This document shows, piece by piece, positions 5,577 through 61,596 of a stretch of 64,000 nucleotides of DNA. The notes beneath the pieces were generated by a model. That model worked only from the letters and a program-made list of their open reading frames with translations, did not search any database and had not been told where the DNA came from. The translations under genes were made by a program, and so were the position numbers. The DNA comes from Salibacter halophilus (GTDB lineage Bacteria > Bacteroidota > Bacteroidia > Flavobacteriales_G > Salibacteraceae), in contig NZ_WACR01000004.1 of the NCBI RefSeq assembly GCF_008806325.1, positions 1 through 64,000 on the forward strand, given 5' to 3'. Position 1 is the first letter of the stretch. Every line of letters begins with the position of its first letter.

Positions 5577-5725
5577 GTAAGTTTCCAACGTTTGTAAAGG
5601 CCTCTTCTCATCTTTACACGATTGAGTTACGAGGTATTTTCGGTCAGAGCCTGAAAAATATCATTAACACAAACTCTAAAGTTTAGTGATATCGATTGGT
5701 TTTGATCGTAAAAGACACATTACTT

Positions 5726-7546
5726 TTATTCAAAAGCCTGCAAGTCAGTGAGTTTTTTGTAAACACCACCCTGAGCGATGAGATTATCGTGATTTCCGCG
5801 TTCTACGACTTCACCTTCCTGCATGACGATGATTTCATCAGCGTGTTGAATAGTCGACAATCGGTGTGCGATGACGATAGAGGTGCGGTTTTCCATCAAT
5901 TTGTACAGAGCGTCCTGTACAAGTTTTTCAGATTCTGTATCAAGGGCAGAGGTTGCTTCGTCCAGAATCATAATGGGTGGGTTTTTCAATACAGCTCTGG
6001 CTATGCTGATGCGTTGTTGTTGACCGCCTGATAACTTTCCTCCACCATCGCCAATGTTGGTGTCGTATCCGTTTGGAAGGTTCTCGATGAATTCGTGTGC
6101 ATTCGCAATTTTAGCCGCTTCAATCACAGCTTCGCGATCGGGGTTTTCAACTCCCAGAGCAATGTTATTGAACACGCTGTCATTGAACAGAATTGAACGC
6201 TGAGAAACAATTCCCATGAGGTTGCGCAGATCTTTGATCTTGTATTCCCTGATGTCTTTATCATCGATGAAAACTCCGCCCTCAATGGGATCGTAAAAAC
6301 GAGGAAGTAAATCTACCAGTGTGGATTTACCACCACCTGATTGGCCTACAAGTGCGACTGTTTTTCCCTTGGAAACTTTGATGTTGATGTTTTTCAGAAC
6401 CTTAGCTTCTTCATAAGCAAAACTCAAGTTTCTGTATTCGATTGAGTTTTCAAAACTCCTGATAGGAAGGGCATTTGGCTTGTCTTTGATTTTGTTCTCA
6501 GCCTGTAATATTTTTTCGATTCGCTCCGTTGAGGCAGCTCCTTTTTGAATGTTGTAATAAGCTGTTGAAAGCGATTTGGCCGGATTCAGCAACTGTGAGA
6601 ACATCGCGATGTAGCCGAGAAATTCTTCAGCACTAAAGTCGATTGATTCATCAACGACCATCTTTCCACCGTACCAAACCAAAATAACCATCACTAATGC
6701 TCCTAAAAATTCACTGGCCGGAGAGGCGAGATCGCGTTTGCGAAACATGCGCAACATGGTGTTGCGGTAAATGGTATTGATACCTGTGAATTTTTTATCA
6801 GCAGATTCTTCTGCATTAAAAGCCTTAAGAATACGCAATCCTCCCAGTGTTTCTTCAACGGTTGACAGTAATTCTCCCATTCTGATCTGGAGCTTGGATG
6901 AGGTGCGTTTAAGGCTTTTTCCAATTTTCCCGATTATGAGACCACTAATTGGTAAAAGGATGAAAGCGAAAAGTGTCAGTTCTGCATTTAGCGTCAACAT
7001 GAAAATGAGAGACATCACAATGCTGATGGGATCGCGAAAGACCATTTCCAGCGAGTTCATGATCGACCACTCGATTTCTTGTACGTCTCCCGTGATCCGA
7101 CTAATAATATCTCCTTTTTTCTCTTCAGAGTAGAATGAGAGCGGAAGTGCTAAAATCTTTTTGAAAACCTGGGCTCTTATATCTCTTACAACTCCACTCC
7201 GAATTGAAGCGAGAAAGAACTTCGCAAAGTAGCGGAAGAGGTTTTTGAGAAAGAATAAAATAGCGATCAATATACAGATGTAAAAGAGTGCTCCCTCAAC
7301 ACCAAAATCATCGATGTAAGGTGTGATTTGATAGCTGAACATCTCCTTTACATAATCAGAACTCAACTCAAATTTCGGACGTTCTGTAACACGATCTGCC
7401 CGGCCCATGATGATGGACAAAAACGGGATGAGCGCCAGAATTGAAAGCAGGTGAAAGATTACGTGTAATACATTCGAAAAAACACTTAAAAAAGCGAGTG
7501 TTTTGTAAGGTACTATGTACTTAACTATTTTGAGTAAGCTCTTCAT
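5726..7546 (-). CDS. MsbA-like ABC exporter (fused membrane and ATPase domains)
   Basis: 606 residues. The N-terminal half is an ABC type 1 exporter membrane domain with about six helices (YKTLAFLSVFSNVLHVIFHL; FYICILIAILFFLKNLF; ELTLFAFILLPISGLIIG; FLGALVMVILVWYGG). The C-terminal ATPase has Walker A GQSGGGKST, Q-loop VSQRSILF, signature LSGGQQQR, Walker B IMILDEAT and the H-loop in IVIAHRLST. Half-transporters of this type dimerise in the inner membrane and flip lipids such as lipid A precursors. The following gene, a glycosyltransferase only 9 bp away, supports a role in lipid or polysaccharide export. The substrate cannot be read from sequence. Confidence 0.88.
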   Translation of the reverse strand: MKSLLKIVKYIVPYKTLAFLSVFSNVLHVIFHLLSILALIPFLSIIMGRADRVTERPKFELSSDYVKEMFSYQITPYIDDFGVEGALFYICILIAILFFLKNLFRYFAKFFLASIRSGVVRDIRAQVFKKILALPLSFYSEEKKGDIISRITGDVQEIEWSIMNSLEMVFRDPISIVMSLIFMLTLNAELTLFAFILLPISGLIIGKIGKSLKRTSSKLQIRMGELLSTVEETLGGLRILKAFNAEESADKKFTGINTIYRNTMLRMFRKRDLASPASEFLGALVMVILVWYGGKMVVDESIDFSAEEFLGYIAMFSQLLNPAKSLSTAYYNIQKGAASTERIEKILQAENKIKDKPNALPIRSFENSIEYRNLSFAYEEAKVLKNINIKVSKGKTVALVGQSGGGKSTLVDLLPRFYDPIEGGVFIDDKDIREYKIKDLRNLMGIVSQRSILFNDSVFNNIALGVENPDREAVIEAAKIANAHEFIENLPNGYDTNIGDGGGKLSGGQQQRISIARAVLKNPPIMILDEATSALDTESEKLVQDALYKLMENRTSIVIAHRLSTIQHADEIIVMQEGEVVERGNHDNLIAQGGVYKKLTDLQAFE

Positions 7547-7555
7547 TCAGAGAAT

Positions 7556-8506
7556 TTAAACGTTGAGTAATTTCCAGTTCTTAAAAGGGAAAAAGTGTTT
7601 TCCGCCATTGATATTTCGCTCCAAGAACGAAAGAAAGCGGTATTTCGTCTTTTCGTGTTTGAACTTTGGCCGGTTTGGCAGTTTGTTGGTTGTGTAATTG
7701 AGGCTATCGGCCCAGTTGAAATCTTTCATTTTATCTTTCATCACAGCCGGGTGTGTCTCTTTGAATTTAGGCAGTCCTTTTAGCGGACCGTAATCAAATT
7801 CCTGTTCCCGATCTTTGTAGAGTGCTTCGGCCTTGCTGTCTCCTTTGTGAATGCTGTCGAGTGCTTTCTTTTTACTCTGCATGTATCTCGGTGGTCGTAC
7901 CCAGCCGTAGTGATAAATGTAGGCGTCAACCTTAGCTACATTCAACAGGTAAGAGCCTTTTTGCTGGCGGTAACTCTTACCATCAAAATTCGGAATTCTG
8001 CGAAATGATTGTGCTGATTCAAATGAGTGGATATCAGGTTTGTTACGCACAATTCTAATCTCATTTTGGTACCAACCGTGGTGATTGATGTAGTGGTCGT
8101 AATCGCCAAAAAAGTGACGGTATTTGAACAAAAGACCTTCAACCTTTTCATTGTTTAAAAGCTCTTCACATCTCGCTTTTATGACGGGTAAATATTTTTC
8201 GTGAACCACTTCATCAGCCTGTACATAAAACAACCAGTCACCGGTGCAGTGCTTCATCGCGATATCAGTTTGATGGGCGTTTTCCATTCCGTTTGGAAAA
8301 GCTTCCGTATCCCACTCAGTCTCGATGATTTTCAGTTTTGGCGAGTCAATACTCTCGAGAATCTCTTTCGTGTTGTCGTCTTCATCACCTTTGCCTAAAA
8401 CGAAAATAAACTCGTCACAAATCGGCAAGATAGAAAGGATGGATTCTTTAATCGGGTAATATAATTTCGATACGTTTCGCCCAAAGCTAAAACCGCTTAT
8501 CTTCAT
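7556..8506 (-). CDS. Family 2 glycosyltransferase
   Basis: 316 residues, cytoplasmic and without membrane spans. The N-terminus has the GT-A nucleotide-sugar fold (ISGFSFGRNVSKLYYPIKES; FIFVLGKGDEDDNTKEILES) and a DxD-like acidic site in GDWLFYVQADEVVHEK. The middle carries FEQ-type aromatic segments (YHYGWVRPPRYMQSK) often seen in GT2 enzymes of envelope glycan synthesis. It lies 9 bp upstream of the ABC exporter in the same direction, so the two are probably one transcript. The sugar donor and acceptor are unknown. Confidence 0.8.
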   Translation of the reverse strand: MKISGFSFGRNVSKLYYPIKESILSILPICDEFIFVLGKGDEDDNTKEILESIDSPKLKIIETEWDTEAFPNGMENAHQTDIAMKHCTGDWLFYVQADEVVHEKYLPVIKARCEELLNNEKVEGLLFKYRHFFGDYDHYINHHGWYQNEIRIVRNKPDIHSFESAQSFRRIPNFDGKSYRQQKGSYLLNVAKVDAYIYHYGWVRPPRYMQSKKKALDSIHKGDSKAEALYKDREQEFDYGPLKGLPKFKETHPAVMKDKMKDFNWADSLNYTTNKLPNRPKFKHEKTKYRFLSFLERNINGGKHFFPFKNWKLLNV

Positions 8507-8548
8507 GCATGAAAGATTTTGTGCGAAATTAGGTTTTTTGAAATTATA

Positions 8549-10624
8549 CTAATGCGTTATCAGTACTTTCTTGGTGTAGTTACGGTCAGAGCCGGAAATG
8601 CTGATTACGTAAACTCCGGGATTTAGGTCTGCGGGCAAACTGGTTCTGACCATTGAGCCGGCATAGAACGGTTTGCTGTAAACGAGCTGACCACTGAGGT
8701 TGTACATCGATAATTCAATTCCGGAGTCGAATGCTTTGTCAATCGTGATTTGTCCACCCGGTGAAGCCGGATTGGGATAAAAGTTGATTTCGTCAGATTC
8801 TTTTTTAACGATTTCATTTCCAACAGCAAAAGTTGGTTGGTAAACTAAAATATGATTTCTCGGGTGTACATTTTCTGAGGTAAAGTCGAGTACCTGTCCG
8901 CTCTCGCGTTTAACGATAACTTTTCCATTGTTTTCAGTTCCGTGTACTCCAAAGCTCAAAAATGGGTCGAGTGGAAACTGATCATCGGGAATTGTGATAA
9001 CTGTTGTGCCATCGCCTTGTGGTTCTGACCAAAAACGGAGTTGTTCTCTTTTCTTCCAAAAGTTGCCGTAAGTTTCCATGTCGAGAATCATGTTTTTCTC
9101 GCTCAGGTAGTCGAGGTAGAGTTTCATCGCATCAACTTTCCATATTCTGTTGGGGTGGATGAGCAGTGTGACAGGTGAATAGTTGTATTCGTATTGTTTT
9201 GTCGCCTTCACCCAGTCTGTTACACCTTCATGGTAATTGTAAGATTCAAATCCGTTTGCATTGTAAACATCGCTCAGTGTCATCGAGATTTCGTAAACGG
9301 ATGTTGTGCGTCCGCTGAAACTTCTGTTTTCTTTTAAAGGAAATGGAAAACTGTACATGAGGTCATTAGTACTCAGAGAGCTTTCAAACTGGTAATTTTG
9401 AGCTTCCAGCGCATTGGCGAGTTTATCGGGGAAGCGTAAATGTCCTGATCTAAATGTTTTGATGCTGACACCGTGATTTGCTTCCAGTATGTTTTTGGAA
9501 ACTTCAACTTCCGGCATTACATAGCCATTATTGGTGCTGTTGCCATCGTAAAATGGCGTGTAGTTGAATGGTGTTAATCCTGACGGACCCAATGGGAATT
9601 CGTGAAAATCATAAAAGTGACCAACGGAGTGGCTGCTGATGATTTGGTTGTAGGATAATAGTTGTTGAACTTCAGGATGGTTTTCCACGTAGAAGTCGCT
9701 CATAGCGCTATCGGCAAAGTAACGAGTAGTGATGTTGTAATTTGCTCTTATTCCTCTTTTTAGTTCTTCCATAGCGAAATACTTCATGGTGTCCATACCG
9801 GTTCGGCTGTCTACATCGTGAGTAACCATTACGGTGTTGTAGCTATTAGCCGGTGAAGTATGCTTCCAAACAAAGTTATCGATTTCTTTTGCTAGAATCG
9901 ATCTGATAAAGAGCGGGAAAACATCGGCTCCGGGCTCAAAACCGTTTGAAAAAGTGCGTTCAGCATTGTAGTCGTAATTCAGCATGCAGCGGAGTGAGAC
10001 ATCTCTCAGCGACAAACCAAAAGCATAGAGTTTTCCCTGTCCGTATTCATGGCGAATTACAGCTGGCTTTGACTGATCATTTTCAAAGTAGGCGAGAGGT
10101 GTTGCGCCATCTAAATCGTAATGGCGTGAGTAAATTACCTCGGGGTAATCGGTTCTACCGAGTTGAATTTCCTTTTCGAGGGGATCATCAAAATAAGTGA
10201 AAAGATCAGGATTTGAGTCAGTATCCCAATTGAGGAAGTAGTTGTTTTGAGTTGAGGTATAATCTGAAATTCCAAACAGGTCGTAGAAATCCGGGTCTTT
10301 GACATTGGAGGTGATCACTACACCACCGTTTGAAACATAGTTTGTAATGGAGTCGCGCTGTGAAGAATTAAAAGTTCCGTTTAAAATATCAGATGAGAAG
10401 AGAATTGCTCCGTACTGACTGGCATCTCCAATTGATTTTCGCACAACAAATGAAGCTCCTGTCGCGATTAAAATCTGCTTACAAGCGAAAAGGCGTGAAT
10501 CGTTGTTATTGTTGAGGTGAGTCATGTCGAGCAGGCAAACCATGCTCTGCTTTTGAATGCTATTTTGTGCCTGTAAACTGAAAGTCAGTAGCACAGTTAC
10601 GAAAGCCAGTAAAATACTTCTCAT
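8549..10624 (-). CDS. T9SS-sorted polysaccharide-deacetylase-like protein
   Basis: 691 residues with a clear signal peptide (MRSILLAFVTVLLTFSLQAQ). Residues about 30-130 resemble a flavodoxin-like or ThuA-like domain (YGAILFSSDILNG; ITNYVSNGGVVITSN). The middle has NodB-type deacetylase features: VMVTHDVDSRTG (paired Asp), SSHSVGHFYDFHEFP (His motif) and IKTFRSGHLRFP (Arg motif). The C-terminus is a T9SS type A sorting domain (INFYPNPASPGGQITID, ending GVYVISISGSDRN then KKVLITH). It is probably a surface enzyme acting on acetylated polysaccharide; whether the metal site is complete needs structural alignment. It carries three exact copies of the GGTCAGANCC DNA word. Confidence 0.75.
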   Translation of the reverse strand: MRSILLAFVTVLLTFSLQAQNSIQKQSMVCLLDMTHLNNNNDSRLFACKQILIATGASFVVRKSIGDASQYGAILFSSDILNGTFNSSQRDSITNYVSNGGVVITSNVKDPDFYDLFGISDYTSTQNNYFLNWDTDSNPDLFTYFDDPLEKEIQLGRTDYPEVIYSRHYDLDGATPLAYFENDQSKPAVIRHEYGQGKLYAFGLSLRDVSLRCMLNYDYNAERTFSNGFEPGADVFPLFIRSILAKEIDNFVWKHTSPANSYNTVMVTHDVDSRTGMDTMKYFAMEELKRGIRANYNITTRYFADSAMSDFYVENHPEVQQLLSYNQIISSHSVGHFYDFHEFPLGPSGLTPFNYTPFYDGNSTNNGYVMPEVEVSKNILEANHGVSIKTFRSGHLRFPDKLANALEAQNYQFESSLSTNDLMYSFPFPLKENRSFSGRTTSVYEISMTLSDVYNANGFESYNYHEGVTDWVKATKQYEYNYSPVTLLIHPNRIWKVDAMKLYLDYLSEKNMILDMETYGNFWKKREQLRFWSEPQGDGTTVITIPDDQFPLDPFLSFGVHGTENNGKVIVKRESGQVLDFTSENVHPRNHILVYQPTFAVGNEIVKKESDEINFYPNPASPGGQITIDKAFDSGIELSMYNLSGQLVYSKPFYAGSMVRTSLPADLNPGVYVISISGSDRNYTKKVLITH

Positions 10625-10749
10625 ACGTAATGGATTTAGAACTCAGGTATTGACACAAATACCAGGCCGACTAAAATACGCTTTTCTTCTAACTTACTGA
10701 AAGCTTGTGTTAACGGTATGAGCGAAGTTTTTTGGCTGTAAAACGGACT

Positions 10750-11388
10750 CTAAAGTTTTCTAATTATGGTAATGCCATCTCTAATTGGGAGAATGATCTC
10801 GCTTACACGATGATCTTCTTTGACATGTTTATTGAACTTGCGGAGCGCTACAGTATCCTCATCATTTGCTTTTTCATCGATTACTTTTCCGCTCCACAGT
10901 ACGTTATCAGCAACGATGAAGCTACCCGGTTTCATTTTAGGAATTACTTTTTCGTAGTAATTAAGATAATTTGATTTATCGGCATCGAGGAAAACCAGGT
11001 CCCAGTCTTTATCGAGTTCATCGATGATCTCGAGTGCGTTTCCCAGGTGAAAGTGAATAGGGTTATTGGGCTCGTCCAGTTTTAGGTATTTTTTGAGAAT
11101 GGGTTGTAATTCTTCGTTTTTATCAATGGTGTGAATTTCACCTCCATCTTTTAATCCTTCAAGCCAGCAAAGTGCTGAGTAGCCTGTATATGTGCCTATT
11201 TCCAGAATGTTTTCGGGTCTGACCATAAAGCTGATCATACTCAGGAGTCTGCCTTGATAATCACCGGCTAACATCCGTGGATTTAATACTTTAATGTGTG
11301 TTTCGCGATTGAGTTGTTGTAAAATTTCAGGTTCTGAGTCGCTGTGATTAATCGCGTAATCGAGAATATCGTGTTCGATGAAATCCAT
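10750..11388 (-). CDS. SAM-dependent O-methyltransferase (family 3)
   Basis: 212 residues, the normal size of the small bacterial catechol/caffeoyl-CoA-type O-methyltransferases. The SAM-binding motif is ENILEIGTYTGYSALCWLEG, followed by IHTIDKNEE (ribose-binding acidic residue) and the metal-binding DLVFLDADKSNYLNYYE and VADNVLWSGKV. It should transfer methyl groups to hydroxyl groups of small aromatic or polyol substrates; the substrate is unknown. It follows the M16 peptidase gene with a 3-bp gap, so it is part of the helicase-peptidase-methyltransferase operon. Confidence 0.9.
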   Translation of the reverse strand: MDFIEHDILDYAINHSDSEPEILQQLNRETHIKVLNPRMLAGDYQGRLLSMISFMVRPENILEIGTYTGYSALCWLEGLKDGGEIHTIDKNEELQPILKKYLKLDEPNNPIHFHLGNALEIIDELDKDWDLVFLDADKSNYLNYYEKVIPKMKPGSFIVADNVLWSGKVIDEKANDEDTVALRKFNKHVKEDHRVSEIILPIRDGITIIRKL

Positions 11389-11391
11389 AAA

Positions 11392-12618
11392 TCAATTGTT
11401 TGGCTCAAAGATAAGAGAGCTCATTTGATCGGGATTGAAAATGTCAGCTGCAACATCCTGTAATTGCTCGGCTGTGATGGATTCAATTTGGTCGAAAACA
11501 TCTTCTAATGTGTCAACCTCGTTGTAATTCAACAGACTTTTGCCCATTGCCAACATCGTGTTGAGTCCGCTTTCACGGGCGAGTGAGAGCTGACCTTTTA
11601 ATTGTTGCTTAGCCTGGTTGAGCTGGATTGGTCCCAGTTTTTTATTTGCTAACTTGTTCAGCTCTCTGTGAATCAGCTTGATTGATTTGTCGAGGTATTT
11701 TGGCTCAGTCCCCAAATAAACACTGAATAGACCTGTATCAGCGTAAGAGACAAATGCAGATTCGAGATGGTAAGCAAATCCGTATTTCTCGCTGATGTTG
11801 AGGTTTAGCCTGCTGTTCATAGCAGGTCCGCCCAAAATATTATTCAGCAAAACGAGCGCTCTCCTGTTTTCGTGATGCGAGTCATACGCGACATTTCCCA
11901 TCATGAGATGCGCCTGGTTGACATCGCGTTTACTGACGACTTGCTGTGGTTTGTAATTTAATTTTGAAGGAGACTTTATTGCGTTTCGGTCAGAGCCGGC
12001 TGGCGTGTATTTTTCCAGTAGCCGAACTATTTTATCGAGTGATTCAGGTCCGGAGTAAGAAAAAATGATGTTTGAAGGAGTGTAATTCCGCGAGTAGAAG
12101 TCGATCAAAGAAGAGCGATTGAAGCGCTTGATATTGTCGAGCGTACCCAAAATATTATGCCCTAGGGGATGATCAGCAAAAAGTTGATCCTCAAAGTCAT
12201 CGTAAATCTGCTCACCCGGGCTGTCCTGGTAGGCGTAGATTTCATCAATCACGATGAGTTTTTCTTTTGTTATTTCACGATCGGGGAAAATTGAGTTGAA
12301 AGTGATATCGCTCAACAACTCAACAGATCGCTGTGTGTGCTCAGCTAAAAAAGAGGCGTGAATAACGGTGTCTTCCTTTGAAGTGAAAGCGTTGAGCTCG
12401 CCACCTACATTATCAATTCTGCTGAGAACGTGAAATGCTTTTCTGTTGCTTGTTCCTTTGAAAAGGCAATGCTCGATGAAGTGAGCCATTCCAAATTCAT
12501 CCTGTTTTTCATCGCGCGTACCGCAATCGATAAAAAAGCCGGCATGTGAGGCAATGCTGTTGTGTTGTTCGTAAACAACGCGTAATCCGCTATTTAATTT
12601 GACAACTTCTGGATCCAT
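11392..12618 (-). CDS. M16 family zinc peptidase
   Basis: 408 residues, typical of single-chain processing-peptidase-like M16B enzymes. The inverted zinc motif HxxEH is HFIEH at residues 46-50, followed by the distal glutamate region in KLIVIDEIYAYQDSP. The C-terminal half has the family glycine-rich and Arg/Tyr segments (GGPAMNSRLNLNISEKYGFAY). There is no signal peptide, so it is probably cytoplasmic. These enzymes degrade peptides or processed precursors. Its ATG overlaps the stop of the helicase gene (TAATG), indicating translational coupling. Confidence 0.9.
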   Translation of the reverse strand: MDPEVVKLNSGLRVVYEQHNSIASHAGFFIDCGTRDEKQDEFGMAHFIEHCLFKGTSNRKAFHVLSRIDNVGGELNAFTSKEDTVIHASFLAEHTQRSVELLSDITFNSIFPDREITKEKLIVIDEIYAYQDSPGEQIYDDFEDQLFADHPLGHNILGTLDNIKRFNRSSLIDFYSRNYTPSNIIFSYSGPESLDKIVRLLEKYTPAGSDRNAIKSPSKLNYKPQQVVSKRDVNQAHLMMGNVAYDSHHENRRALVLLNNILGGPAMNSRLNLNISEKYGFAYHLESAFVSYADTGLFSVYLGTEPKYLDKSIKLIHRELNKLANKKLGPIQLNQAKQQLKGQLSLARESGLNTMLAMGKSLLNYNEVDTLEDVFDQIESITAEQLQDVAADIFNPDQMSSLIFEPNN

Positions 12619-13922
12619 TAATCTTGACCTTTATTCTTTGGTCGCGGGTTGTTGTGCTTATTTTTATTTTGGTTATGACCGTGATGCTTTTTGCCTTTGT
12701 GGTGGTGTTTGTGCTTCGGTTTTCCTTTTCCCTTAAACTTATTTCGGTTATTCCCCGATTTTCGTTTTGGGTCATAACCCGGGCTTTTACCAATCTCCTC
12801 AGGCGTTTGGAGCTTTTCAACGTCCTTTTCAATCAGTTTTTCAATATTGTAGTATTTGAATTGATCTTTAGGGTTGATGAATGAAATAGCCGCTCCTGAC
12901 TTTCCGGCTCTTGCTGTACGGCCAACACGGTGAACATAATCAGCAGGATCATCCGGGATATCATGATTGACAACATGACTCAAATCATCGATGTCGATTC
13001 CGCGAGAGAGAATATCAGTTGCAACAAGTACTTTGTAGTGACCAGCTTTGAACTTTCTCAAAATCTCATTTCGCTCACTTTGGTCTTTGCCTGAGTGAAT
13101 AGCTGCGATGGGGAAGTTGTATTTTTTGAGGCTATTCGCAATGCGATCTACATCGCTTTTTCGTGAAGCAAAAACGACCATTGTTTTCACATCCTGTGTT
13201 TTGACAATATGTTCGAGCAGGGCTACTTTATTGTCATCGTAAACAAGGTAAGCCAGTTGGTTGATATTTTCAGCCGGCTTATCAACAGATAGGTTTATTT
13301 GTGTTGGGTTGTGGAGAATTTTCTCTGCCAGTTTTCTAATGTTAGGAGCCATCGTGGCAGAGAACATTAAGGTTTGCTTTTTCTCAGGCAACTTACTGTT
13401 GAGCAGTTTGATGTCTTCAATAAAACCCATATCAAGCATGCGGTCTGCCTCGTCCAGAATAAAAAAGTCTAATTCGCTGAAATCAGCATAACCGAGACTG
13501 ATGTGCGATTTTAATCTCCCCGGTGTAGCGACAATAATATCGACACCGTTTTGGATAGATGCTTTTTGTTGTGAGAATTCAGCTCCTTCATTGCCACCGT
13601 ATACTGCCTGGCAGGAAACATGAGTCCCGTATATAAAACCGATGAGGTTTTGCTCTATTTGCTGAGCGAGTTCGCGTGTTGGCGATAGTATCACACAACG
13701 AACTTTACTGCTCTCTTTTTCCAGTAGCTTATTGACGAGTGGAATGAGAAAGGCTGCTGTTTTACCGGTTCCGGTTTGTGCACAGCCAATTATGTCTTGA
13801 CCTTTTAGTATTTCAGGAATTACCTGAGCCTGAATAGGAGTGGGTTTGTCAAAACCGAATGCGTCTATTGCTGAGAGTAAGTCCTGATTGAGATTGAAAT
13901 CTGAAAATGCTTTTATTTCCAT
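12618..13922 (-). CDS. DEAD-box ATP-dependent RNA helicase
   Basis: 434 residues from ATG 13922. An in-frame start at 13991 adds 23 unalignable residues, whereas MEIKAFSDFNLNQDLLSAID is a standard N-terminus. All helicase motifs are present: Q motif (FDKPTPIQAQVIPEIL), I (AQTGTGKT), Ia (PTRELAQQ), II (DEAD), III (SAT), V (ATDILSRGIDI) and VI (HRVGRTARAG). It unwinds RNA in ribosome assembly or mRNA decay, like RhlE. The C-terminus is a low-complexity tail very rich in Lys, His and Asn, likely disordered and RNA-binding. It heads the operon with the M16 peptidase and O-methyltransferase. Confidence 0.93.
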   Translation of the reverse strand: MEIKAFSDFNLNQDLLSAIDAFGFDKPTPIQAQVIPEILKGQDIIGCAQTGTGKTAAFLIPLVNKLLEKESSKVRCVILSPTRELAQQIEQNLIGFIYGTHVSCQAVYGGNEGAEFSQQKASIQNGVDIIVATPGRLKSHISLGYADFSELDFFILDEADRMLDMGFIEDIKLLNSKLPEKKQTLMFSATMAPNIRKLAEKILHNPTQINLSVDKPAENINQLAYLVYDDNKVALLEHIVKTQDVKTMVVFASRKSDVDRIANSLKKYNFPIAAIHSGKDQSERNEILRKFKAGHYKVLVATDILSRGIDIDDLSHVVNHDIPDDPADYVHRVGRTARAGKSGAAISFINPKDQFKYYNIEKLIEKDVEKLQTPEEIGKSPGYDPKRKSGNNRNKFKGKGKPKHKHHHKGKKHHGHNQNKNKHNNPRPKNKGQD

Positions 13923-14086: not shown

Positions 14087-14112
14087 GCATTATTGGGAAT
14101 AATTGTTGGTAT

Positions 14113-14553: not shown

Positions 14554-14582
14554 AGCTATTTACTTTTTAAAATAGGTGAATA

Positions 14583-53494: not shown

Positions 53495-53645
53495 GGTTTA
53501 ATTTTTCCGGTGCAAGGTGAACAATTGTTTGGGCGCAAAGTTCTTAAAAACCACGTTACGAGCAACAAAAATCAATGATCGGTTTATGGGGATGATGTGT
53601 GGTTGGGGAGGTGAGTTTATTAAACGCTTTATGCATTAATTGTTT

Positions 53646-54461: not shown

Positions 54462-54491
54462 TACTGGTACTGTTAGCTTAAATATCCTTAT

Positions 54492-55274
54492 TTATGATGG
54501 AATAACAACATATCGAAACTGGATAAAGTCATCAAAGTCACCATAAGCATGGTAGTCTTTTTTACTTTTTATTTTTATTTGAATATCACAGGTTTTTCCA
54601 ATATCATCGTGTTTAAATGTTAATTTTCTTTTATTTGATTCTGACCAGTTTTCTTCACCTATCCTTTCTATGCTAAATTCAATTTTATCACCAAGTGGAT
54701 CCGTTGAATAGGCCTTTAACTCAATTTCTTCTCCTACTCTTACAGTACCATCATTGACTATGATCTGTGAATAAGTAGGGTTACTTATTGAGTTTCCAAG
54801 ACTATCATTAGCAGCCTCTATTCTTGGAAAAAAATCTTCTGAATCTTCTTTTTTACCTCTATATTGCATTATTGTTGTCCTTATTTCTCCGCTTATTCCT
54901 TTTATTAAATACTTTTGATAATCAAATAACTCCCTTCTATGAGCATGGGCGTCTCGATATTTTTCAATTAGGCTTAGTAAAGCTGTTATCAATTTTTTAT
55001 CTCTGAAAACAGAATCTAAGCCATCGTCCCAGTGTTTTATTATTATGCCTTTTAAGTCGTAGAAATCAGAATAATAAATTAGTCTATTATCAAGAAAAGT
55101 GCTTCTTAACCTTTTTTCTTCTATTACCTGTCTTTCCTTCCATTTTCCAATTCTAGATTCAGAAATTTTTAGGTTACTTACCCAGTTATCTCCAAGTGAT
55201 TTTTTTAATACAAAGGTGATTATATCTCTGACAGAGTTTTCTAGAATTTTTAACTCTTCTTCTACATCTACCAT
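54492..55274 (-). CDS. HEPN-motif protein with C-terminal Ig-like domain
   Basis: 260 residues. Residues 1-140 are helical (VRDIITFVLKKSLGDNWVSN; LIYYSDFYDLKGIIIKHWDD; LITALLSLIEKYRDAHAHRR) and end with R107-x4-H112, the R-X4-6-H RNase motif of HEPN domains, in a layout like Swt1-type HEPN proteins. After a linker, residues ~165-260 look like an Ig/PKD sandwich (IIVNDGTVRVGEEIELKAYS; KTCDIQIKIKSKKDYHAYG). No signal peptide, so a cytoplasmic Ig-like domain, perhaps for recognition. Middle gene of the operon. RNase activity is an inference from the motif. Confidence 0.55.
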   Translation of the reverse strand: MVDVEEELKILENSVRDIITFVLKKSLGDNWVSNLKISESRIGKWKERQVIEEKRLRSTFLDNRLIYYSDFYDLKGIIIKHWDDGLDSVFRDKKLITALLSLIEKYRDAHAHRRELFDYQKYLIKGISGEIRTTIMQYRGKKEDSEDFFPRIEAANDSLGNSISNPTYSQIIVNDGTVRVGEEIELKAYSTDPLGDKIEFSIERIGEENWSESNKRKLTFKHDDIGKTCDIQIKIKSKKDYHAYGDFDDFIQFRYVVIPS

Positions 55275-55302
55275 AAATTAAGTAGTCATTAGTAAGTTAA
55301 AA

Positions 55303-55683
55303 TTATTTACTTTTTAGTTTCATTGAAGCTGCTTCAACCTTGTCAATAAAAGACTCTAAAAAATTTCGCTTCATTCCCTTCGTTTCAAAAATTATAGGCT
55401 TTCCTCCATCTGGTGTGATAGAGACAACATGTCTTTTTGATTTATAGTAGATGATGATTAACACAATCCCTATCAATACTGGTATTGTTATAATCCCAAT
55501 TATCAGTAGCCATACATTGCTTTTGTAATAAGTCAATTCAATTGAGCTTATTTTATCAAGCATTATTGATGTGAAATTTGAATTTCTTTTAGGAGTTTCG
55601 TGGTAACGTAGTCTATGAGTGGTTAGTCTTATTTGTTTATTATTTGATTCAGTGATGAGCTTTTCGTTATCTAATCCTTCCAT
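55303..55683 (-). CDS. Small membrane protein with PH-like fold
   Basis: 126 residues. LITESNNKQIRLTTHRLRYH and MLDKISSIELTYYKSNVWL are the strands of a bacterial PH-like domain. A hydrophobic hairpin follows (LLIIGIITIPVLIGIVLIII), then another strand region (RHVVSITPDGGKPIIFETKG) and a C-terminal helix. No signal peptide; probably an inner-membrane protein facing the cytoplasm. First gene of the operon, 28 bp before the HEPN-like gene. It could tether the HEPN and Shedu-like proteins to the membrane (speculative). Confidence 0.55.
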   Translation of the reverse strand: MEGLDNEKLITESNNKQIRLTTHRLRYHETPKRNSNFTSIMLDKISSIELTYYKSNVWLLIIGIITIPVLIGIVLIIIYYKSKRHVVSITPDGGKPIIFETKGMKRNFLESFIDKVEAASMKLKSK

Positions 55684-56509
55684 TTTATTTCGGTTTGGCT
55701 AATATAATAACTGCAATGGAAACCAGTTTTTAATTCTTCCTCCTGATGCACAGTGATTGAAAGAGAGTTGGAATTATTATGCAGGGTTAAATTAAGTTTA
55801 ATTTATATCTCAAAACTAACGCTTTGTGCTCCCTTTTACAAATAATGTTTTATTGAATTTTGATTGAGTATGAGATTAGTTTGAACTTCTTAGGTGTTCT
55901 TAGAGAAGCTACAAATAACTTAATGGGTCAGTAGGATGGTATATTATTAATATCTGCTAAGTTTTACGCATAAGTTACTGAGTCCGTAAAGCTCGTAATT
56001 GTGTTTTCTGTGTAAGAAGGTAAATTAGCTTGTCCTCTATGATGGTTTAAACCATTAAAACAGGCGATACTTAATTCAACAATTAACCAGAATCTTAATT
56101 CGTGGATTACGTCTCATCAGTCAGCGATATGTAGCGGATGTGCGTAGTCGCGTCTTTGAGTTTCTTGCCTGTGACAGAAGCGTCAGAGGCTTAGAAAGTC
56201 ATAGACCCACGCACTTGCTGCGGGGTCTCAAACTACGAAAAAGACAAAGCACGAAGCACACAATCCGACTACGGTTTTCGCAGCGGACGCGGAGAAAAAT
56301 CGCCTCTGATGAGACTTGACTTTTACGTCCTTTGTGTCAAGACAAAGGACAAAAAATACTGGAATACTCAAAACAGCTGGTCAGCATTAAATTTGAAGTC
56401 TTAACTCCCTATGCTTCGATCACGCATTTCGGCTTCGCTCAATGCACCGCTCAGCAGCCGGGTATTATGACTCAAAACCAAACCAACAAACCTCCAAACT
56501 TGTTCAACC
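55684..56509. other. 826-bp non-coding region with palindromes and repeats
   Basis: No credible gene. It contains a 14-bp perfect palindrome ATGGTTTAAACCAT (56042-56055), two facing copies of GTCTCATCAG (56111-56120 and complement 56306-56315), and a 9-bp hairpin GTCCTTTGT/ACAAAGGAC (56327-56350). The GC-richer middle (56100-56330) differs sharply from the AT-rich operon next to it and may mark an insertion boundary. Confidence 0.5.
56098..56131 (+). repeat. Dispersed repeat unit, second copy at 50141-50173
   Basis: ATTCGT-N6-CGTCTCATCAGT-N-AG-N-GAT is found here on the plus strand and at 50141-50173 on the minus strand. A partial copy (GTCTCATCAG...GGCGAT) is at 56301-56315, inverted. All three are intergenic. 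Confidence 0.45.
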
Positions 56510-57118
56510 TCACTTCACCCTCGTAGTCAGCATTTTTTCATCGCCCAGGTATGCCTCCAGTGTGTCGCCAATTTCTACTTTTCCTACGCCTTTTGGTGTA
56601 CCCGTGTAGATGAGGTCGCCAATCTTGAGTGTGAAATATTTAGAAACGTGGCTGATGATGCTGTCGATCGAGAATATCATGTCTTTTGATGTTCCCTGCT
56701 GTACAACTTCCCCGTTTTTTTCGAGTCGGAATTGAATGTCGTTCAGATCCAGAGTTTCTTTTTTTACAAACTTACCGAGTGGGGCAGAGCCGTCAAATCC
56801 TTTTGCTTTTTCCCAGGGTAGTCCTTTTTCCTTGCATTCTTTTTGGATATCGCGAGCAGTAAAATCTATTCCAATCCCGATTTCATCATAATATTTGTGA
56901 GCGAATTCTTCATCGATGTGTTTGCCCACTTTGTTGATGCGAACAACGAGTTCAACTTCGTGGTGAACGTCACTGGTAAATTCCGGAATAAAAAACGGCT
57001 TTCCCGATTGCAGGATAGCAGAATCGGGTTTGCAAAAAACGACCGGTTCTTTGGGAACCGGGTTGTTCAGTTCTTTGGCGTGATCACGGTAGTTGCGACC
57101 TATACAAATGATTTTCAT
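56510..57118 (-). CDS. Fumarylacetoacetate-hydrolase (FAH) family protein
   Basis: 202 residues, short single-domain FAH form. MKIICIGRNYRDHAKELNNP is the typical start, EVELVVRINKVGKHIDEE carries the metal-binding Glu pair, GIGIDFTARDIQKECKEKGL and GLPWEKAKGFDGSAPLG follow, and DLIYTGTPKGVGKVEIGD closes the fold. Members hydrolyse or decarboxylate acylpyruvates and oxaloacetate using Mg2+. It overlaps no gene, and lies 7 bp after the exonuclease gene in the same direction. Confidence 0.9.
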   Translation of the reverse strand: MKIICIGRNYRDHAKELNNPVPKEPVVFCKPDSAILQSGKPFFIPEFTSDVHHEVELVVRINKVGKHIDEEFAHKYYDEIGIGIDFTARDIQKECKEKGLPWEKAKGFDGSAPLGKFVKKETLDLNDIQFRLEKNGEVVQQGTSKDMIFSIDSIISHVSKYFTLKIGDLIYTGTPKGVGKVEIGDTLEAYLGDEKMLTTRVK

Positions 57119-57125
57119 CGCTATC

Positions 57126-57899
57126 CTATTTGTTTTCTTTATCGAGTTCGAGTTTGACTTTTTTCAAAATGGTTTTTGTGCTCTGCGGGAAATCGCCTTT
57201 CATCATCCACGAATAGTAAGACGGTTCTGACCTAAATACATCTTTGACGAGCTTGTTGCGGTGCTTCCCGAAGTTGAAAACAATTTCCTTTTTCTTGTTG
57301 TAGGCGAGTCGGCCCATGAGATCAGCAAAGTTACCGCGCTTTGAGAATTCGTGAAGGAACTCCATGTCGTTTTTGAGCGTGTCGTAGCGATCGAGCTGAG
57401 CCAAAAAAACCTCGTATGTTGCCATCGTATCAGCATCGGCACTGTGGGCGTCATCGAGTGATTTGTCGCAATAGAATTTGTAAGCTGCAGCCAGTGTGCG
57501 CTGTTCCATTTTGTGAAAGATGTTTTGTACATCGATCAACCTGCGATCGGTTAAGTCAAAATCCAAACCGGCACGGTAAAACTCTTCTACTAGGAGCGGA
57601 ACATCAAATTTGTTGGAGTTGAATCCGCCCAAATCGCAATCTTTGAAAAACAGGAACAGGGCAGGAGCCAGGTCCTCAAAACTGGGTTCATTTTCCACGT
57701 CTTTATCCCAAATGCCGTGAATATTACTCGTTTCTTCGGGAATGGGCATTTGCGGATTCACCAGGTGTCGTTTTTCTTCTTTTTTACCGTTTGGCCACAA
57801 TTTTAGAATTGCGATTTCTACTATTCGATCAGAGCCGACATTGACACCGGTTGTTTCCAAATCAAAAAAGGCTAGCGGACGATCTAAGGACAAATTCAT
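57126..57899 (-). CDS. DnaQ-like 3'-5' exonuclease
   Basis: 257 residues from ATG 57899; a start at 57947 would run through a terminator hairpin. DEDDh motifs: ExoI LAFFDLETTGV with the Asp-Glu pair, ExoII LGGFNSNKFDVPLL, ExoIII AHSADADTMATYEV with His-x4-Asp. The C-terminal part (KKEIVFNFGKHRNKLVKDVF; EPSYYSWMMKGDFPQST) is a DUF3820-like domain often fused to these exonucleases. Probably a DNA repair or proofreading nuclease. Likely co-transcribed with the FAH-family gene. Confidence 0.9.
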   Translation of the reverse strand: MNLSLDRPLAFFDLETTGVNVGSDRIVEIAILKLWPNGKKEEKRHLVNPQMPIPEETSNIHGIWDKDVENEPSFEDLAPALFLFFKDCDLGGFNSNKFDVPLLVEEFYRAGLDFDLTDRRLIDVQNIFHKMEQRTLAAAYKFYCDKSLDDAHSADADTMATYEVFLAQLDRYDTLKNDMEFLHEFSKRGNFADLMGRLAYNKKKEIVFNFGKHRNKLVKDVFRSEPSYYSWMMKGDFPQSTKTILKKVKLELDKENK

Positions 57900-57923
57900 A
57901 TAGATGATTTTAATTCTTAAAAG

Positions 57924-57958
57924 AAAAGCCGGTGATTGACTGAGCAATACCGGCTTTT
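57924..57958 (-). terminator. Intrinsic terminator after the OmpA-family gene
   Basis: 10-bp perfect stem AAAAGCCGGT/ACCGGCTTTT with a 15-base loop, 20 bp past the OmpA-family stop, T-rich beyond on the minus strand. Confidence 0.7.
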
Positions 57959-57977
57959 GTTGTGATATTTAGTTTGT

Positions 57978-60131
57978 TTATTTCTCTTTTGTTTCGTTTG
58001 ACTTTTCAGTTTTATCCTCTTTCATTTCTTTTTCTTCAGGGATAATCACTTCAATGTCAACACGTCTGTTTTTAGCAGCGGCTTCTTCGATGTAGTTACC
58101 TTCTTCATCGTAATCCTCAACGATAGGTTGTTCTTCACCTTTGAAGTCGATCGTGATGCGGTCGTCACTGATGCCCATTTCTTCAAGCGCGCTCGATACA
58201 GACTTAGCACGTCTTTTCGATAGCATTTTGTTGTACCATGACGGACCTTTAGTATCGGTGTGACCTGTGAGTTTCACTGTTACTTTATCGTGATCGTTGA
58301 GGTAGTTACCTACTTTCTCTACAATCGCTTTAGCCGTACCGTTGATCTCGTCACTGTCAAATCCAAATCTCACGTCCTTAAACTGAGCTGCAGCGAGTAG
58401 AATTGGCTCGTCAAGCTCGATGCTCGATGTTTTGACATCAGGCTGTAATCTGTGGCCATCAGGCAACGAAGCAAAGAATTCTTCAGGGCTCTGATCATCA
58501 CGATACTTTTCGATGTCGTAAAGCGCATTCGTCACAGTTGTGTTTTGAGCGATTACATTACCATCCTGATCTTTTTGTAGTGAAAGCTCGATCTTTTGGT
58601 AGAGATCGTACTCAACACACTGCTCAGGAATTGAGAATGCAATTGTATCGTTGAGGTAGTTTTCAGCAGTTGTCACGAGTGAGTAAGCTTTACCCGGTTC
58701 AACATTGATGCTGTAATCTCCTGTTTTGTTATCAACTTCAATCGTCTCGATTTTTTCACCGTCAACATTGGCGAGTGTCAGGTTAGCTGAAAGCGGCTTG
58801 CCTTCTGCGAGAAGTTTTCCGTTGATCGTAGATTCTTCGATTGGCTTGCAAGTCCAAAGACGATAAATATCCATGTTTCCATATCCGCCCTTACGGTCTG
58901 AGGCGAGGTAGAAAATTTCGCCTTTATCGTCAGCCGGTACGAGGTGAATATCGTTTCCAGTACTGTTGATCGGAACCCCTAAGTTTTCGACTTTCCACGT
59001 GCCATTTTCCTCTGTTGCTTTAAACAGATCGTGGCCTCCCATCGAGTTGTGGCCTTTTGACGAAAAGTAGAATGTGCCGTCCTCAGCTAGGTATGGAGAA
59101 TCTTCATCGTAAGGAGTGTTGATGCCGTCCATCGGTTTCCAGTTACTCCATGTACCACCTTCATTTTTCGAGATGAAAATGTCGAGTCCGCCACTTCCTG
59201 ATTCCGGAAGATAAGCGACCATGAAACGTTGATCAGCATCTTTGTTGGTGTAAATTGCTGTCATGTCTGCATCGGTCAGATCTCCAACTTCAACCTTTTG
59301 CGCTACTGGTGAACCACCGTTTTCTGATGCGTAAAGATCAGTGTTGCGGTAGAAATAGAAAGTTCTTTTATCTGAGCTGAAGTTAATTCCAGATTCGCTT
59401 TGCGGAGTGTTCACGCTTTGCGGAATGTGAAGTCCTTCTGGTCTTGTACGCTCTTTCCAATTATCATTGAGAAGTTCGTATCCCGATGTGTAAATATCAT
59501 CATCAGCTTCTTTTTCAACTTCGAATTCACCTTTGAAATCTGAACTCGATTTTGTTGCAGAGAAAACGAGAAACTTTTGATCCTGGTAAAGAACCGGTGC
59601 GTACTCAGTCAATTCAGTGTTGATTCCTTCGCCCAGGTTATCGACACGCATTTGATCGTTAACTTGTTTACTGATGACCTTGCCGTCTTCAGCCTGGCGA
59701 ATCATGTTGTTGACTTCAGCTCTCAGCTTTACACCGTCTTTGTTGTCGCCAATGAGCGGTTTGAATTCTTTGAAAGTTGAAATCGCCTGATCGAACTGTC
59801 CGTCATAGAGAAGAGCCTGACCGTAAAAATAGCCACTTTCTTCAATGATTTTATGGTTGACTTTTTTGAGGTAGTCAACTGCTTTTTCGCGTTCAATTCC
59901 CGATTTGAAAATTGAGAGTCCGAGTAGGAAGTTGTACTCGTTATTTTCTGGATAGGCTTTCACGAGTTCTTTGTAAGTATCGCGAGCGTCAATCCATTGG
60001 CCGTTGTCGATCTGTTCTTCGCCTTTATTCTCGAGCTCTTTTACGTTGATTTGGTCTTGGCTCTGACCGAGAGAAGGGCTAATTGAAGAAACGATCAGTG
60101 TTGTAGTAATTAGGATTTCTCTAAGGTTCAT
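57978..60131 (-). CDS. OmpA-family protein with TPR and PD40 propeller
   Basis: 717 residues. Signal peptide, then TPR-like helices (DARDTYKELVKAYPENNEYN), PD40 beta-propeller blades (SGINFSSDKRTFYFYRNTDL; YDEDSPYLAEDGTFYFSSKG; IFYLASDRKGGYGNMDIY), a carboxypeptidase-regulatory Ig domain (STINGKLLAEGKPLSANLTL) and an OmpA peptidoglycan-binding domain (FGFDSDEINGTAKAIVEKVG; LTGHTDTKGPSWYNKMLSKR; NRRVDIEVI). This architecture matches PorE-like proteins linked to T9SS in Bacteroidota, so a role anchoring that machinery is possible. It has its own terminator. Confidence 0.85.
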   Translation of the reverse strand: MNLREILITTTLIVSSISPSLGQSQDQINVKELENKGEEQIDNGQWIDARDTYKELVKAYPENNEYNFLLGLSIFKSGIEREKAVDYLKKVNHKIIEESGYFYGQALLYDGQFDQAISTFKEFKPLIGDNKDGVKLRAEVNNMIRQAEDGKVISKQVNDQMRVDNLGEGINTELTEYAPVLYQDQKFLVFSATKSSSDFKGEFEVEKEADDDIYTSGYELLNDNWKERTRPEGLHIPQSVNTPQSESGINFSSDKRTFYFYRNTDLYASENGGSPVAQKVEVGDLTDADMTAIYTNKDADQRFMVAYLPESGSGGLDIFISKNEGGTWSNWKPMDGINTPYDEDSPYLAEDGTFYFSSKGHNSMGGHDLFKATEENGTWKVENLGVPINSTGNDIHLVPADDKGEIFYLASDRKGGYGNMDIYRLWTCKPIEESTINGKLLAEGKPLSANLTLANVDGEKIETIEVDNKTGDYSINVEPGKAYSLVTTAENYLNDTIAFSIPEQCVEYDLYQKIELSLQKDQDGNVIAQNTTVTNALYDIEKYRDDQSPEEFFASLPDGHRLQPDVKTSSIELDEPILLAAAQFKDVRFGFDSDEINGTAKAIVEKVGNYLNDHDKVTVKLTGHTDTKGPSWYNKMLSKRRAKSVSSALEEMGISDDRITIDFKGEEQPIVEDYDEEGNYIEEAAAKNRRVDIEVIIPEEKEMKEDKTEKSNETKEK

Positions 60132-60197
60132 AAATCTATTAATTATACGGTTTGGTGTGTTGTTATGCGTTCAAAGATAGGATTTTAACTGATAAAA

Positions 60198-60232
60198 AAA
60201 CCCTTGTTCAAATGAATTTTAAACAAGGGTTT
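60198..60232 (-). terminator. Intrinsic terminator after the E2 gene
   Basis: 11-bp perfect stem AAACCCTTGTT/AACAAGGGTTT, loop of 13 bases, followed on the minus strand by a T7 run. Confidence 0.85.
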
Positions 60233-60258
60233 TAAGGTCTTTTGTTAATAACGTGATT

Positions 60259-61596
60259 TTAGATGTCGCGAGACACGTCAAAGCTTTCGAGGTAATCGGC
60301 AACTTTTCTCACGAACATTCCACCAAGTGCACCGTCAACCACGCGGTGGTCATAACTGTGCGATAAATACATCATGTGGCGAATACCCAGCGTATCTCCC
60401 GCTTCAGTTTCGATGACGGCCGGTTTCTTTTGAATTGAACCAACTGCCATGATCGCAACTTGCGGCTGCGGAATGATAGGCGTACCCATCACGTTTCCGA
60501 ATGAACCTACATTAGAGATGCTGTAAGTTCCTCCGTCAATTTCTTCAGGTTTGAGCTTGTTGTTTCTCGCTCTGTTTGCGAGATCGTTCACTTTCTTACT
60601 CAATCCTACAAGGTTGTATTGATCAGCATCGTGAATAACAGGAACAATGAGGTTTCCTGATGGAGTAGCTGCCGCCATTCCGATGTTGATGCGTTTTTTT
60701 CTTACAATGTTGTCGCCATCCACTGACACGTTGATGAGTGGGAAATCTTTAATGGCTTTGACAATTGCTTCGATGAAGATAGGCGTGAAGGTGATTTTTT
60801 CTCCTTCGCGTTTTTGGAATTCGTTCTTCACCTTGTTTCTCCAGTTCACGATGTTGGTCACATCGGCTTCTACGAATGAAGTTACGTGTGGAGAAATCTG
60901 CTTTGACTCGCGCATGTTTTTGGCAATGATCTTGCGCATGCGGTCCATTTCGATTATTTCGACATCGTCACCGTAAGATTTAGCTGGCTTAACCTGTTCA
61001 GGCTGCGATGCAGCTTTTGGTTGTGAAGCTGATGCAGGAGCGCTCTTCTGTTGAGGAGCTGCTTTTTGAGCACCGGCATTTTCTATAAATCCGAGGATAT
61101 CAGCTTTTGTTACTCGACCGTTTTGGCCAGTGCCATCGATTTGATCGAGCTGTTCAACTGAAATACCTTCTTCTTTCGCAATATTTTTAACGAGTGGAGA
61201 GTAGAATCTATCAGATTTTGAGAAATCGTGACCCTGAGCAGCTGGAGCTGTTGCTGAGCCGTTGTTTGAAGATGCTGCTGCCGGAGCGGGAGCTGCTGTT
61301 TCTTCTTGTGTCGTTTCTTCCTGGTCAGAACCGGAAGCTTCTTCAGCGCCTTCGCCTTCAGCTTCGATCACTGCAATGACATCGCCAACTTGCGCAACGT
61401 CACCTTCGTTGACCTTGATTTCTTTGATAACGCCATCAGCGGGTGCAGGGACCTCGCTGTCCACTTTATCTGTTGCTATTTCAACTATCGATTCTTCTGC
61501 TTCAACTGTGTCGCCTTCGCTTTTCAACCATGTTGTAATGGTCGCTTCGGCTACACTTTCACCCATCTTGGGTAATGTCACTTCAACCTGTGCCAT
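60259..61596 (-). CDS. 2-oxoacid dehydrogenase E2 acyltransferase
   Basis: 445 residues. Lipoyl domain at the N-terminus with the lipoylated Lys in EIATDKVDSEVPAPADG, a Pro/Ala-rich acidic linker, peripheral subunit-binding domain (YSPLVKNIAKEEGISVEQLD; GRVTKADILGFIE) and catalytic domain ending in SHSYDHRVVDGALGGMF, whose His and Asp are catalytic. It transfers acyl groups to CoA in a pyruvate, branched-chain or 2-oxoglutarate complex; which cannot be fixed because no E1 or E3 gene is nearby. A GGTCAGAACC word lies in the linker. Confidence 0.92.
   Translation of the reverse strand: MAQVEVTLPKMGESVAEATITTWLKSEGDTVEAEESIVEIATDKVDSEVPAPADGVIKEIKVNEGDVAQVGDVIAVIEAEGEGAEEASGSDQEETTQEETAAPAPAAASSNNGSATAPAAQGHDFSKSDRFYSPLVKNIAKEEGISVEQLDQIDGTGQNGRVTKADILGFIENAGAQKAAPQQKSAPASASQPKAASQPEQVKPAKSYGDDVEIIEMDRMRKIIAKNMRESKQISPHVTSFVEADVTNIVNWRNKVKNEFQKREGEKITFTPIFIEAIVKAIKDFPLINVSVDGDNIVRKKRINIGMAAATPSGNLIVPVIHDADQYNLVGLSKKVNDLANRARNNKLKPEEIDGGTYSISNVGSFGNVMGTPIIPQPQVAIMAVGSIQKKPAVIETEAGDTLGIRHMMYLSHSYDHRVVDGALGGMFVRKVADYLESFDVSRDI

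What the first reader, a model, noticed from the sequence alone, without database searches (positions are those of the whole stretch)
5642..61332. Highly over-represented DNA word WYGGTCAGANCC
28 exact GGTCAGANCC copies are seen on the two strands of 64 kb. Under a simple base-composition model I calculate 0.25-0.5 expected. In genes the copies fall in all five stop-free frames (Gly-Ser-Asp, x-Leu-Thr, Gly-Gln, Val-Arg, Ser-Glu), and three are intergenic, so the protein sequence cannot explain it. Both orientations occur (12 and 16), which argues against a strand-biased Chi or KOPS element. The asymmetric core with a pyrimidine and A/T flank resembles DNA uptake sequences of Neisseria and Pasteurellaceae. 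A nucleoid-protein or methylase site is an alternative. I know of no such word described for Bacteroidota.
Basis: partly seen in the sequence, partly recalled or inferred. Interest (0 to 1): 0.87.

Follow-up and report, generated by a model that had tools for sequence, protein, structure and literature searches.

The report
Genus-wide repeated DNA word in Bacteroidota
A short DNA word is scattered about once per kilobase or two through the genomes of one bacterial genus and is rare in its sister genera, in the way Neisseria and Haemophilus mark their own DNA for uptake, but here in a phylum where my searches found no such word described.

Summary
GGTCAGANCC occurs 28 times in 64 kb (0.32 expected) and 1482 times in the 3.12 Mb genome, against 4 for the word read backwards. 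Two other species of the genus carry it 486 and 824 times. The other 39 genomes of the order searched have at most 28, and 394 other genomes drawn from the class at most 65.
The true site is broader: T-N-W-Y-(GG)-TCAGANCC, near-strict in TCAGA.C and loose in GG. The other two species use a dialect, TTTTGGTCAGAACC.
Sites show no replication-strand bias, use five reading frames, change place between species (small sample) and mostly arose by substitution. Neighbours alternate in orientation (620 of 949).
Best reading: a DNA-uptake (self-recognition) sequence kept by transformation. Uptake itself is not shown.

The parts
338..62464 (.). 76 weight-matrix sites of the word (39 on +), of which 28 are the exact copies below
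   Evidence: matrix, threshold 10 bits (reversed-matrix control about 5%)
5642..5651 (+). exact word, intergenic, upstream of a threonyl-tRNA-synthetase-like ORF
8584..8593 (+). exact word, left half of a facing pair with 8642
8642..8651 (-). exact word, right half of a facing pair
9021..9030 (-). exact word
11215..11224 (-). exact word, the only N=C copy in the window
11988..11997 (+). exact word
16510..16519 (-). exact word inside a valyl-tRNA-synthetase-like ORF
18120..18129 (+). exact word
18447..18456 (-). exact word
19781..19790 (+). exact word
21298..21307 (-). exact word
22047..22056 (+). exact word
23896..23905 (+). exact word
24354..24363 (-). exact word
25950..25959 (-). exact word inside a P-type ATPase ORF
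26941..26950 (-). exact word at the end of the P-type ATPase ORF
30060..30069 (+). exact word inside a cbb3 oxidase FixP-like ORF
30909..30918 (-). exact word inside a cbb3 oxidase FixP-like ORF
33523..33532 (-). exact word, intergenic
36241..36250 (+). exact word
36849..36858 (-). exact word
39328..39337 (+). exact word, intergenic
47630..47639 (-). exact word inside an MMPL-family ORF
50757..50766 (-). exact word
51083..51092 (+). exact word
57223..57232 (-). exact word
60059..60068 (-). exact word inside an OmpA-family ORF
61323..61332 (+). exact word

Best explanation
The word is a DNA uptake (self-recognition) sequence. A surface DNA receptor of this genus binds T-N-W-Y-GG-TCAGA-N-CC on free DNA. 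Such DNA enters the cell through ComEC and is recombined in. Because DNA carrying the word is taken up more often, alleles that create or improve the word spread by transformation, so the word accumulates to about one copy per one or two kilobases wherever a point mutation can make it. Shown here: genome-wide accumulation, genus restriction with a species dialect, lack of replication-strand bias, strong consensus, origin mostly by substitution, change of positions between species (small sample), and presence of ComEC, DprA and a multi-HHH protein in the window's genome and in G002. Inferred: the receptor, preferential uptake, and the drive.
For: 1482 copies against 4 reversed; 486 and 824 in the two other species of the genus, at most 28 in the other 39 genomes of the order, at most 65 in 394 other genomes of a draw from the class. 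Dialect: position +7 is A, G or T in G000 but A in 110 of 137 sites in G002, with an upstream T tract in G001 and G002. Per-contig + and - counts balanced, e.g. 206/204 over 400 kb in which all twenty 20 kb GC skews are negative or about zero. Gene sense 455, antisense 452 among matrix sites. Perfect words outnumber the real one-off variants: 399 perfect; 383 one-off found where 104 are expected. 60 of 66 testable sites align without a gap to homologues from outside the genus. Positions not kept: 0 of 13 exact G000 sites shared with G002. Regular same-strand spacing and inverted pairs, features listed for USS and DUS in PMC1626085 (passages). ComEC, DprA, HHH. A Bacteroidota species, Riemerella columbina, prefers its own DNA (PMC7965970, section 16 read); the eight genes named essential for transformation in R. 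anatipestifer include no pilus ATPase or secretin (PMC8459023, abstract, two sections and passages).
Against: No uptake assay exists. The competence genes found are equally present in sister genera without the word, so they explain nothing specific. A pilus-like cluster is in G000, but its ATPase and secretin are not found in G001 or G002 (these assemblies are 83% and 94% complete). DUF5689, seen in a Riemerella competence protein, shows the opposite pattern: G001 and G002 yes, G000 no. So no candidate receptor tracks the word. G000 lacks the intergenic preference usual for USS/DUS: 907 of 955 sites are in ORFs where 91.6% is coding. Exact words alone show a slight antisense excess, 163 against 204. 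Gaps are, if anything, commoner at sites than in control windows (9% against 4%). The orientation alternation over hundreds of bases is not predicted by an orientation-independent receptor.
Confidence: 0.6

Rival explanations
1. An intracellular chromosome site: the word is bound by a genus-specific nucleoid, loop-organising or recombination protein (Chi-like in the broad sense), and is selected for regular placement and for facing pairs.
For: Same-strand spacing is more even than permuted (gap CV 0.868 against 1.049, sd 0.028) and facing (+ then -) pairs within 500 bp number 223 against 126.5 expected, sd 9.5. Such geometry suggests that orientation is read. Genus restriction fits a new binding protein.
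Against: No replication-strand bias in any of six contig stretches, whereas Chi and KOPS are co-oriented with replication (recalled). Positions were not conserved between species in a small sample. Enrichment of about 120-fold (399 against 3.3) is larger than usual for Chi (recalled).
Confidence: 0.2
2. A methylation or defence self-label: the word is the target of a modification or self/non-self system and is over-represented because unmarked DNA is attacked.
For: An asymmetric core with a degenerate base and genus-level variation would suit such a system; nothing here excludes a methylase.
Against: Restriction targets are usually avoided, not enriched (recalled). A graded 17-21 bit site with tolerant GG and AT-rich flank is unlike a methylase target. 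No methylation data are available.
Confidence: 0.08
3. Transcription terminators or another RNA-level signal.
For: Some close inverted pairs form a 10-base stem; one in G002 (C2:21589) lies 15 bases after the stop codon of a called ORF and reads into TTTTT on the transcribed strand.
Against: 907 of 955 G000 sites are inside ORFs, in both gene senses (455/452), and 11 of the 14 G000 pairs closer than 120 bp are inside one ORF.
Confidence: 0.03
4. A mobile repeat, a protein-coding repeat, or an assembly or contamination artefact.
For: None beyond repetition.
Against: Flanks beyond the site carry almost no shared sequence in G000; five frames used; 60 of 66 sites align without gaps to homologues from outside the genus; same word in three separate assemblies.
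Confidence: 0.01

Closest known systems
DUS of Neisseriaceae (GCCGTCTGAA and dialects)
   Same: Near one copy per kb, no orientation bias, some close inverted pairs, strong consensus (PMC1626085, passages) and dialects by clade (PMC3630211, passages). The core TCAGA reads TCTGA on the other strand, which also occurs in the DUS; a five-letter overlap that chance could give.
   Different: Different phylum and word; T-rich upstream flank; pilus ATPase and secretin not found in two of three species; in G000 no preference for intergenic DNA.
USS of Pasteurellaceae (AAGTGCGGT with AT-rich flanks)
   Same: Core plus AT-rich flank on one side, both orientations, position bias within genes, more regular than random, sites not insertions (PMC1626085 and PMC2346458, passages).
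   Different: The AT-rich part lies 5' of the core as written and is shorter; orientation alternation of neighbours over hundreds of bases was measured here and could not be measured in a USS genome.
Chi / KOPS
   Same: Hundreds to thousands of short asymmetric sites (recalled).
   Different: No replication-strand bias; larger enrichment; graded, longer site.
HIP1 of cyanobacteria
   Same: Strong over-representation in one clade.
   Different: HIP1 is a palindrome (GCGATCGC; PMC4390886, abstract start in the listing); this word is asymmetric.

Membership tests
DUS/USS-type uptake sequence | Enrichment of the order of 100-fold, near one copy per kb | tested here: met
   399 found, 3.3 expected in 854 kb; 1118 matrix sites per Mb in G000, 592 in G002, 461 in G001, about 5% of them at control level
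[quoted passage not shown]
   all six G000 stretches p>=0.21; all 18 G002 stretches p>=0.07; the sample is 27% of G000
DUS/USS-type uptake sequence | More regular than random, with some close oppositely oriented pairs | tested here: met
DUS/USS-type uptake sequence | Preference for non-coding DNA with many coding copies | tested here: inconclusive
   G002 met: 91 of 293 sites outside ORFs, 12% non-coding; G000 not met: 48 of 955 outside ORFs, 8.4% non-coding
DUS/USS-type uptake sequence | Strong consensus, perfect copies outnumber the real one-off copies | tested here: met
   G000 399 perfect, 383 one-off with 104 expected; G002 137 perfect, 83 one-off with 49 expected
DUS/USS-type uptake sequence | Arises by substitution, not insertion | tested here: met
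   60 of 66 sites ungapped against homologues from outside the genus; gaps 9% at sites, 4% in control windows
DUS/USS-type uptake sequence | Shared by related species, with dialects | tested here: met
   3 of 3 genomes of the genus, two dialects; at background in the 13 other genera of the family
DUS/USS-type uptake sequence | Competence core genes present | tested here: met
   ComEC, DprA, HHH in G000 and G002; in G001 (83% complete) only a partial DprA of these three; also present in word-free sisters; ComF and RecA not searched
DUS/USS-type uptake sequence | Read by a type IV pilus with a DNA-binding minor pilin | tested here: not met
   ATPase and secretin in G000 but not in G001 or G002; pilin-like proteins seen by eye in G000; no DNA binding tested
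DUS/USS-type uptake sequence | Raises uptake or transformation of DNA | not testable with these tools
   needs an assay
Chi / KOPS | Co-orientation with replication (recalled) | tested here: not met
   206/204 over 400 kb in which all twenty 20 kb GC skews are negative or about zero; origin not located
HIP1-like palindrome | Palindromic site | tested here: not met
   core TCAGANCC is asymmetric; no clear covariation of -1 with +10 (counts)
Methylase target | Site is modified | not testable with these tools
   no methylation data

The most novel reading that the evidence does not exclude
The word is read directionally. Neighbouring sites alternate in orientation; same-orientation pairs are at 57% of expectation within 500 bp and stay below it to about 0.9 kb; facing pairs (3' ends towards each other) are in excess to about 0.8 kb in G000 while back-to-back pairs are not. 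If the word is an uptake sequence, this is a genomic footprint of polar DNA uptake by a receptor that is not a ComP-type pilus system, since pilus ATPase and secretin were not found in two of the three species. It would be a first self-DNA word of Bacteroidota and a second, independent way of reading one.
Probability: 0.25. Interest if true: 0.92.

Novelty: new variant of a known kind. Interest (0 to 1): 0.8.

Why it matters
Uptake words are described for Pasteurellaceae and Neisseriaceae, both with type IV pilus machinery (PMC7811141 and PMC12616744, passages). A word of the same strength in a Bacteroidota genus, with a dialect and with two species in which pilus ATPase and secretin were not found, would mean that self-DNA preference evolved again with other hardware. 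It gives a handle for finding the unknown outer-membrane DNA receptor of Bacteroidota, whose transformation in Riemerella is reported to need several proteins of unknown function (PMC8459023). It could also help to make such bacteria transformable in the laboratory. The alternation of orientation makes polar uptake testable from sequence and by experiment.

Tried and rejected
Rejected: simple chance; protein repeat (five frames); mobile repeat (no shared flank); replication-oriented site; a hairpin shown by covariation of -1 and +10 (no clear covariation); gene-position bias as the cause of the pair geometry (simulated 1000 times: neighbours inverted 474.5, sd 15.4, maximum 522; observed 620).

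The orthologue test is small because the species are far apart (64.5% nucleotide identity). The paper searches that turned up no Bacteroidota uptake word were made, in a library without preprints from bioRxiv and without most subscription journals; a search for the letters GGTCAGA returned 4,614 papers, of which I saw only the 20 listed. For the alternation of neighbours the searches were made; regular spacing and close inverted pairs are known for USS/DUS, the range of hundreds of bases I did not find described in the passages seen.

Full report
The observation. GGTCAGANCC occurs 28 times in the window, 12 on + and 16 on -, where shuffles give 0.32; 25 copies fit WYGGTCAGANCC. The whole genome (3,122,189 bases, 32 contigs) holds 1482 against 4 for the reversed control. 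The ten most over-represented 8-mers and 9-mers of the window (each with its complement) are parts of this word.

Who has it. In 42 genomes of the order only the three of the window's genus are high (1482, 486, 824); the other 39 have at most 28. In 395 genomes drawn from the class, which included only G000 of the genus, the next highest is 65, in two genomes of 7.0 and 7.7 Mb. A few genomes of one other family there (f11) are at 40-64 with reversed controls of 4-7; I did not follow them up. The looser pattern TNWYNNTCAGANCC gives 1479, 642 and 1104 in the genus (reversed controls 14, 3 and 5) and 16-51 in 13 sister genomes, one per genus, whose reversed controls are 6-21, so sisters lie somewhat above that control. 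Unbiased word counts in 40-60 kb of seven sister genera show no other comparable word.

The real site. In 854 kb of the genome, replacing each base shows that GG and the last C tolerate change, while in TCAGA.C only two changes are seen clearly above expectation (A to G at the third base, 21 against 2.0; C to T at the second, 11 against 2.7). A weight matrix refined on the genome gives T at -4 (67%), A/T at -2 (84%), C/T at -1 (94%), GG (67-68%), TCAGA, not-C, CC, then weak RRAA; 955 sites against 45 for the reversed matrix. G001 and G002 share the core but prefer T at -4, -3, -2 and -1 and A in the N position: a dialect. By the G000 matrix the window has 76 sites.

Distribution. On each contig the two orientations balance, for example 206 and 204 over 400 kb in which all twenty 20 kb GC skews are negative or about zero, so the word is not oriented to replication. 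Matrix sites are not oriented to genes (455 same, 452 opposite); exact words alone lean slightly antisense (163 against 204). Sense copies are commoner than antisense in the first tenth of ORFs over 600 bases (60 against 20). In G000 95.0% of sites are in ORFs (91.6% coding); in G002 only 68.9% (88.0% coding). ORFs are from a simple longest-ORF caller, so coding fractions are rough. All eight gaps listed for G000 exceed the 6.1 kb expected maximum; the two longest are 13.4 kb (cut by the end of the stretch) and 11.1 kb.

Origin and turnover. Aligned with homologues from outside the genus, 60 of 66 testable matrix sites show no gap (9% gapped; control windows 4%), and in 37 of the 60 the homologue has 3-5 of the 9 letters. 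Between G000 and G002, 0 of 13 exact G000 sites and 0 of 1 G002 site are at the same place in 46 orthologues; between G000 and G001, 0 of 3 in 8; between G001 and G002, in 22, one site is shared (1 of 1 and 1 of 3). A nucleotide-level alignment gave 0 of 5. So the word seems kept as a property of the genome while its positions change, as expected if transformation spreads it, and not if each site has its own job. The samples are small.

Orientation alternation. Neighbouring sites point in opposite directions in 620 of 949 cases in G000 and 185 of 275 in G002; the exact word alone gives 268 of 393 and 80 of 120; in the small G001 sample 17 of 22 exact, but only 29 of 50 by matrix, not significant. 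In G000 same-orientation pairs within 500 bp number 152 where 267 are expected from density, and stay below expectation to about 0.9 kb. Facing pairs (+ then -) within 500 bp number 223 and back-to-back pairs 126, where a model that keeps positions and gene-position bias gives 126.5 (sd 9.5) and 123.1. The effect holds inside single ORFs (318 of 474 inverted) and between neighbouring ORFs (246 of 389), and is slightly stronger for stronger sites (65% rising to 69%). In G002 the excess of facing pairs is limited to the first 200 bp. USS and DUS are described as somewhat more regular than random with some close inverted pairs (PMC1626085, passages); for H. influenzae orientation is reported not to affect uptake (PMC1939737, passages). 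I could not measure the alternation in those genomes. My tentative reading is that a second site of the same orientation adds nothing while one of the opposite orientation does, as if uptake were polar.

Machinery. G000 has a pilus/type II secretion-like cluster at C13:5.3-15.9 kb: pilin, prepilin peptidase, GspE, secretin, GspF and two pilin-like proteins (ATPase and secretin by Pfam profile, the others by eye). Eight sister genera without the word also have ATPase and secretin, and neither is found in G001 (83% complete) or G002 (94%). ComEC is in G000 and G002, not found in G001; DprA in all 16 genomes tested, partial in G001; HHH proteins in 15 of 16, G001 the exception. DUF5689 is in G001, G002 and one sister, not in G000.

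Interpretation. The set of features is that of a DUS/USS, and I commit to an uptake sequence at 0.6. By the membership test it is not filed as a pilus-read DUS: the pilus feature was tested and not met for the genus. It works like one. The main rival is an intracellular chromosome site, which the pair geometry keeps alive at about 0.2.

Literature. No Bacteroidota uptake word turned up. The nearest work counted words in Riemerella and Flavobacterium and lists only A/T-rich words (PMC7965970, section 16 read), while showing that R. columbina prefers its own DNA in competition.

Noticed in passing
   Followed up: yes
G000:C13:5339-15880 (L179): Pilus/type II secretion-like cluster with pilin, peptidase, ATPase, secretin, GspF and pilin-like proteins; patchy in the family and not tied to the word.
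   Followed up: partly
G000:C3:45892-56997 and C3:86623-100000: Word-free stretches longer than expected (the second is cut by the end of the stretch); their genes were listed but not searched against families; possibly recent arrivals.
   Followed up: no
window 39456-47140: No exact copy and only two non-exact sites (41073, 41527) in about 7.7 kb between two well-marked parts of the window; the genes there may be newer to the genome.
   Followed up: no
G002:C2:21589-21622 (locus L123): Inverted word pair with a 10-base stem followed by TTTTT, 15 bases after the stop codon of a called ORF; looks like an intrinsic terminator made of two words.
   Followed up: partly
word core: TCAGA reads TCTGA on the other strand, which is also inside the Neisseria DUS; possibly chance.
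   Followed up: no
genomes of family f11 (G093, G161, G272): GGTCAGANCC at 64, 59 and 40 copies with reversed controls of 5, 7 and 4, a mild excess in another family.
   Followed up: no
DUF5689, seen in a Riemerella competence protein, is found in G001, G002 and G012 but not in G000.
   Followed up: partly
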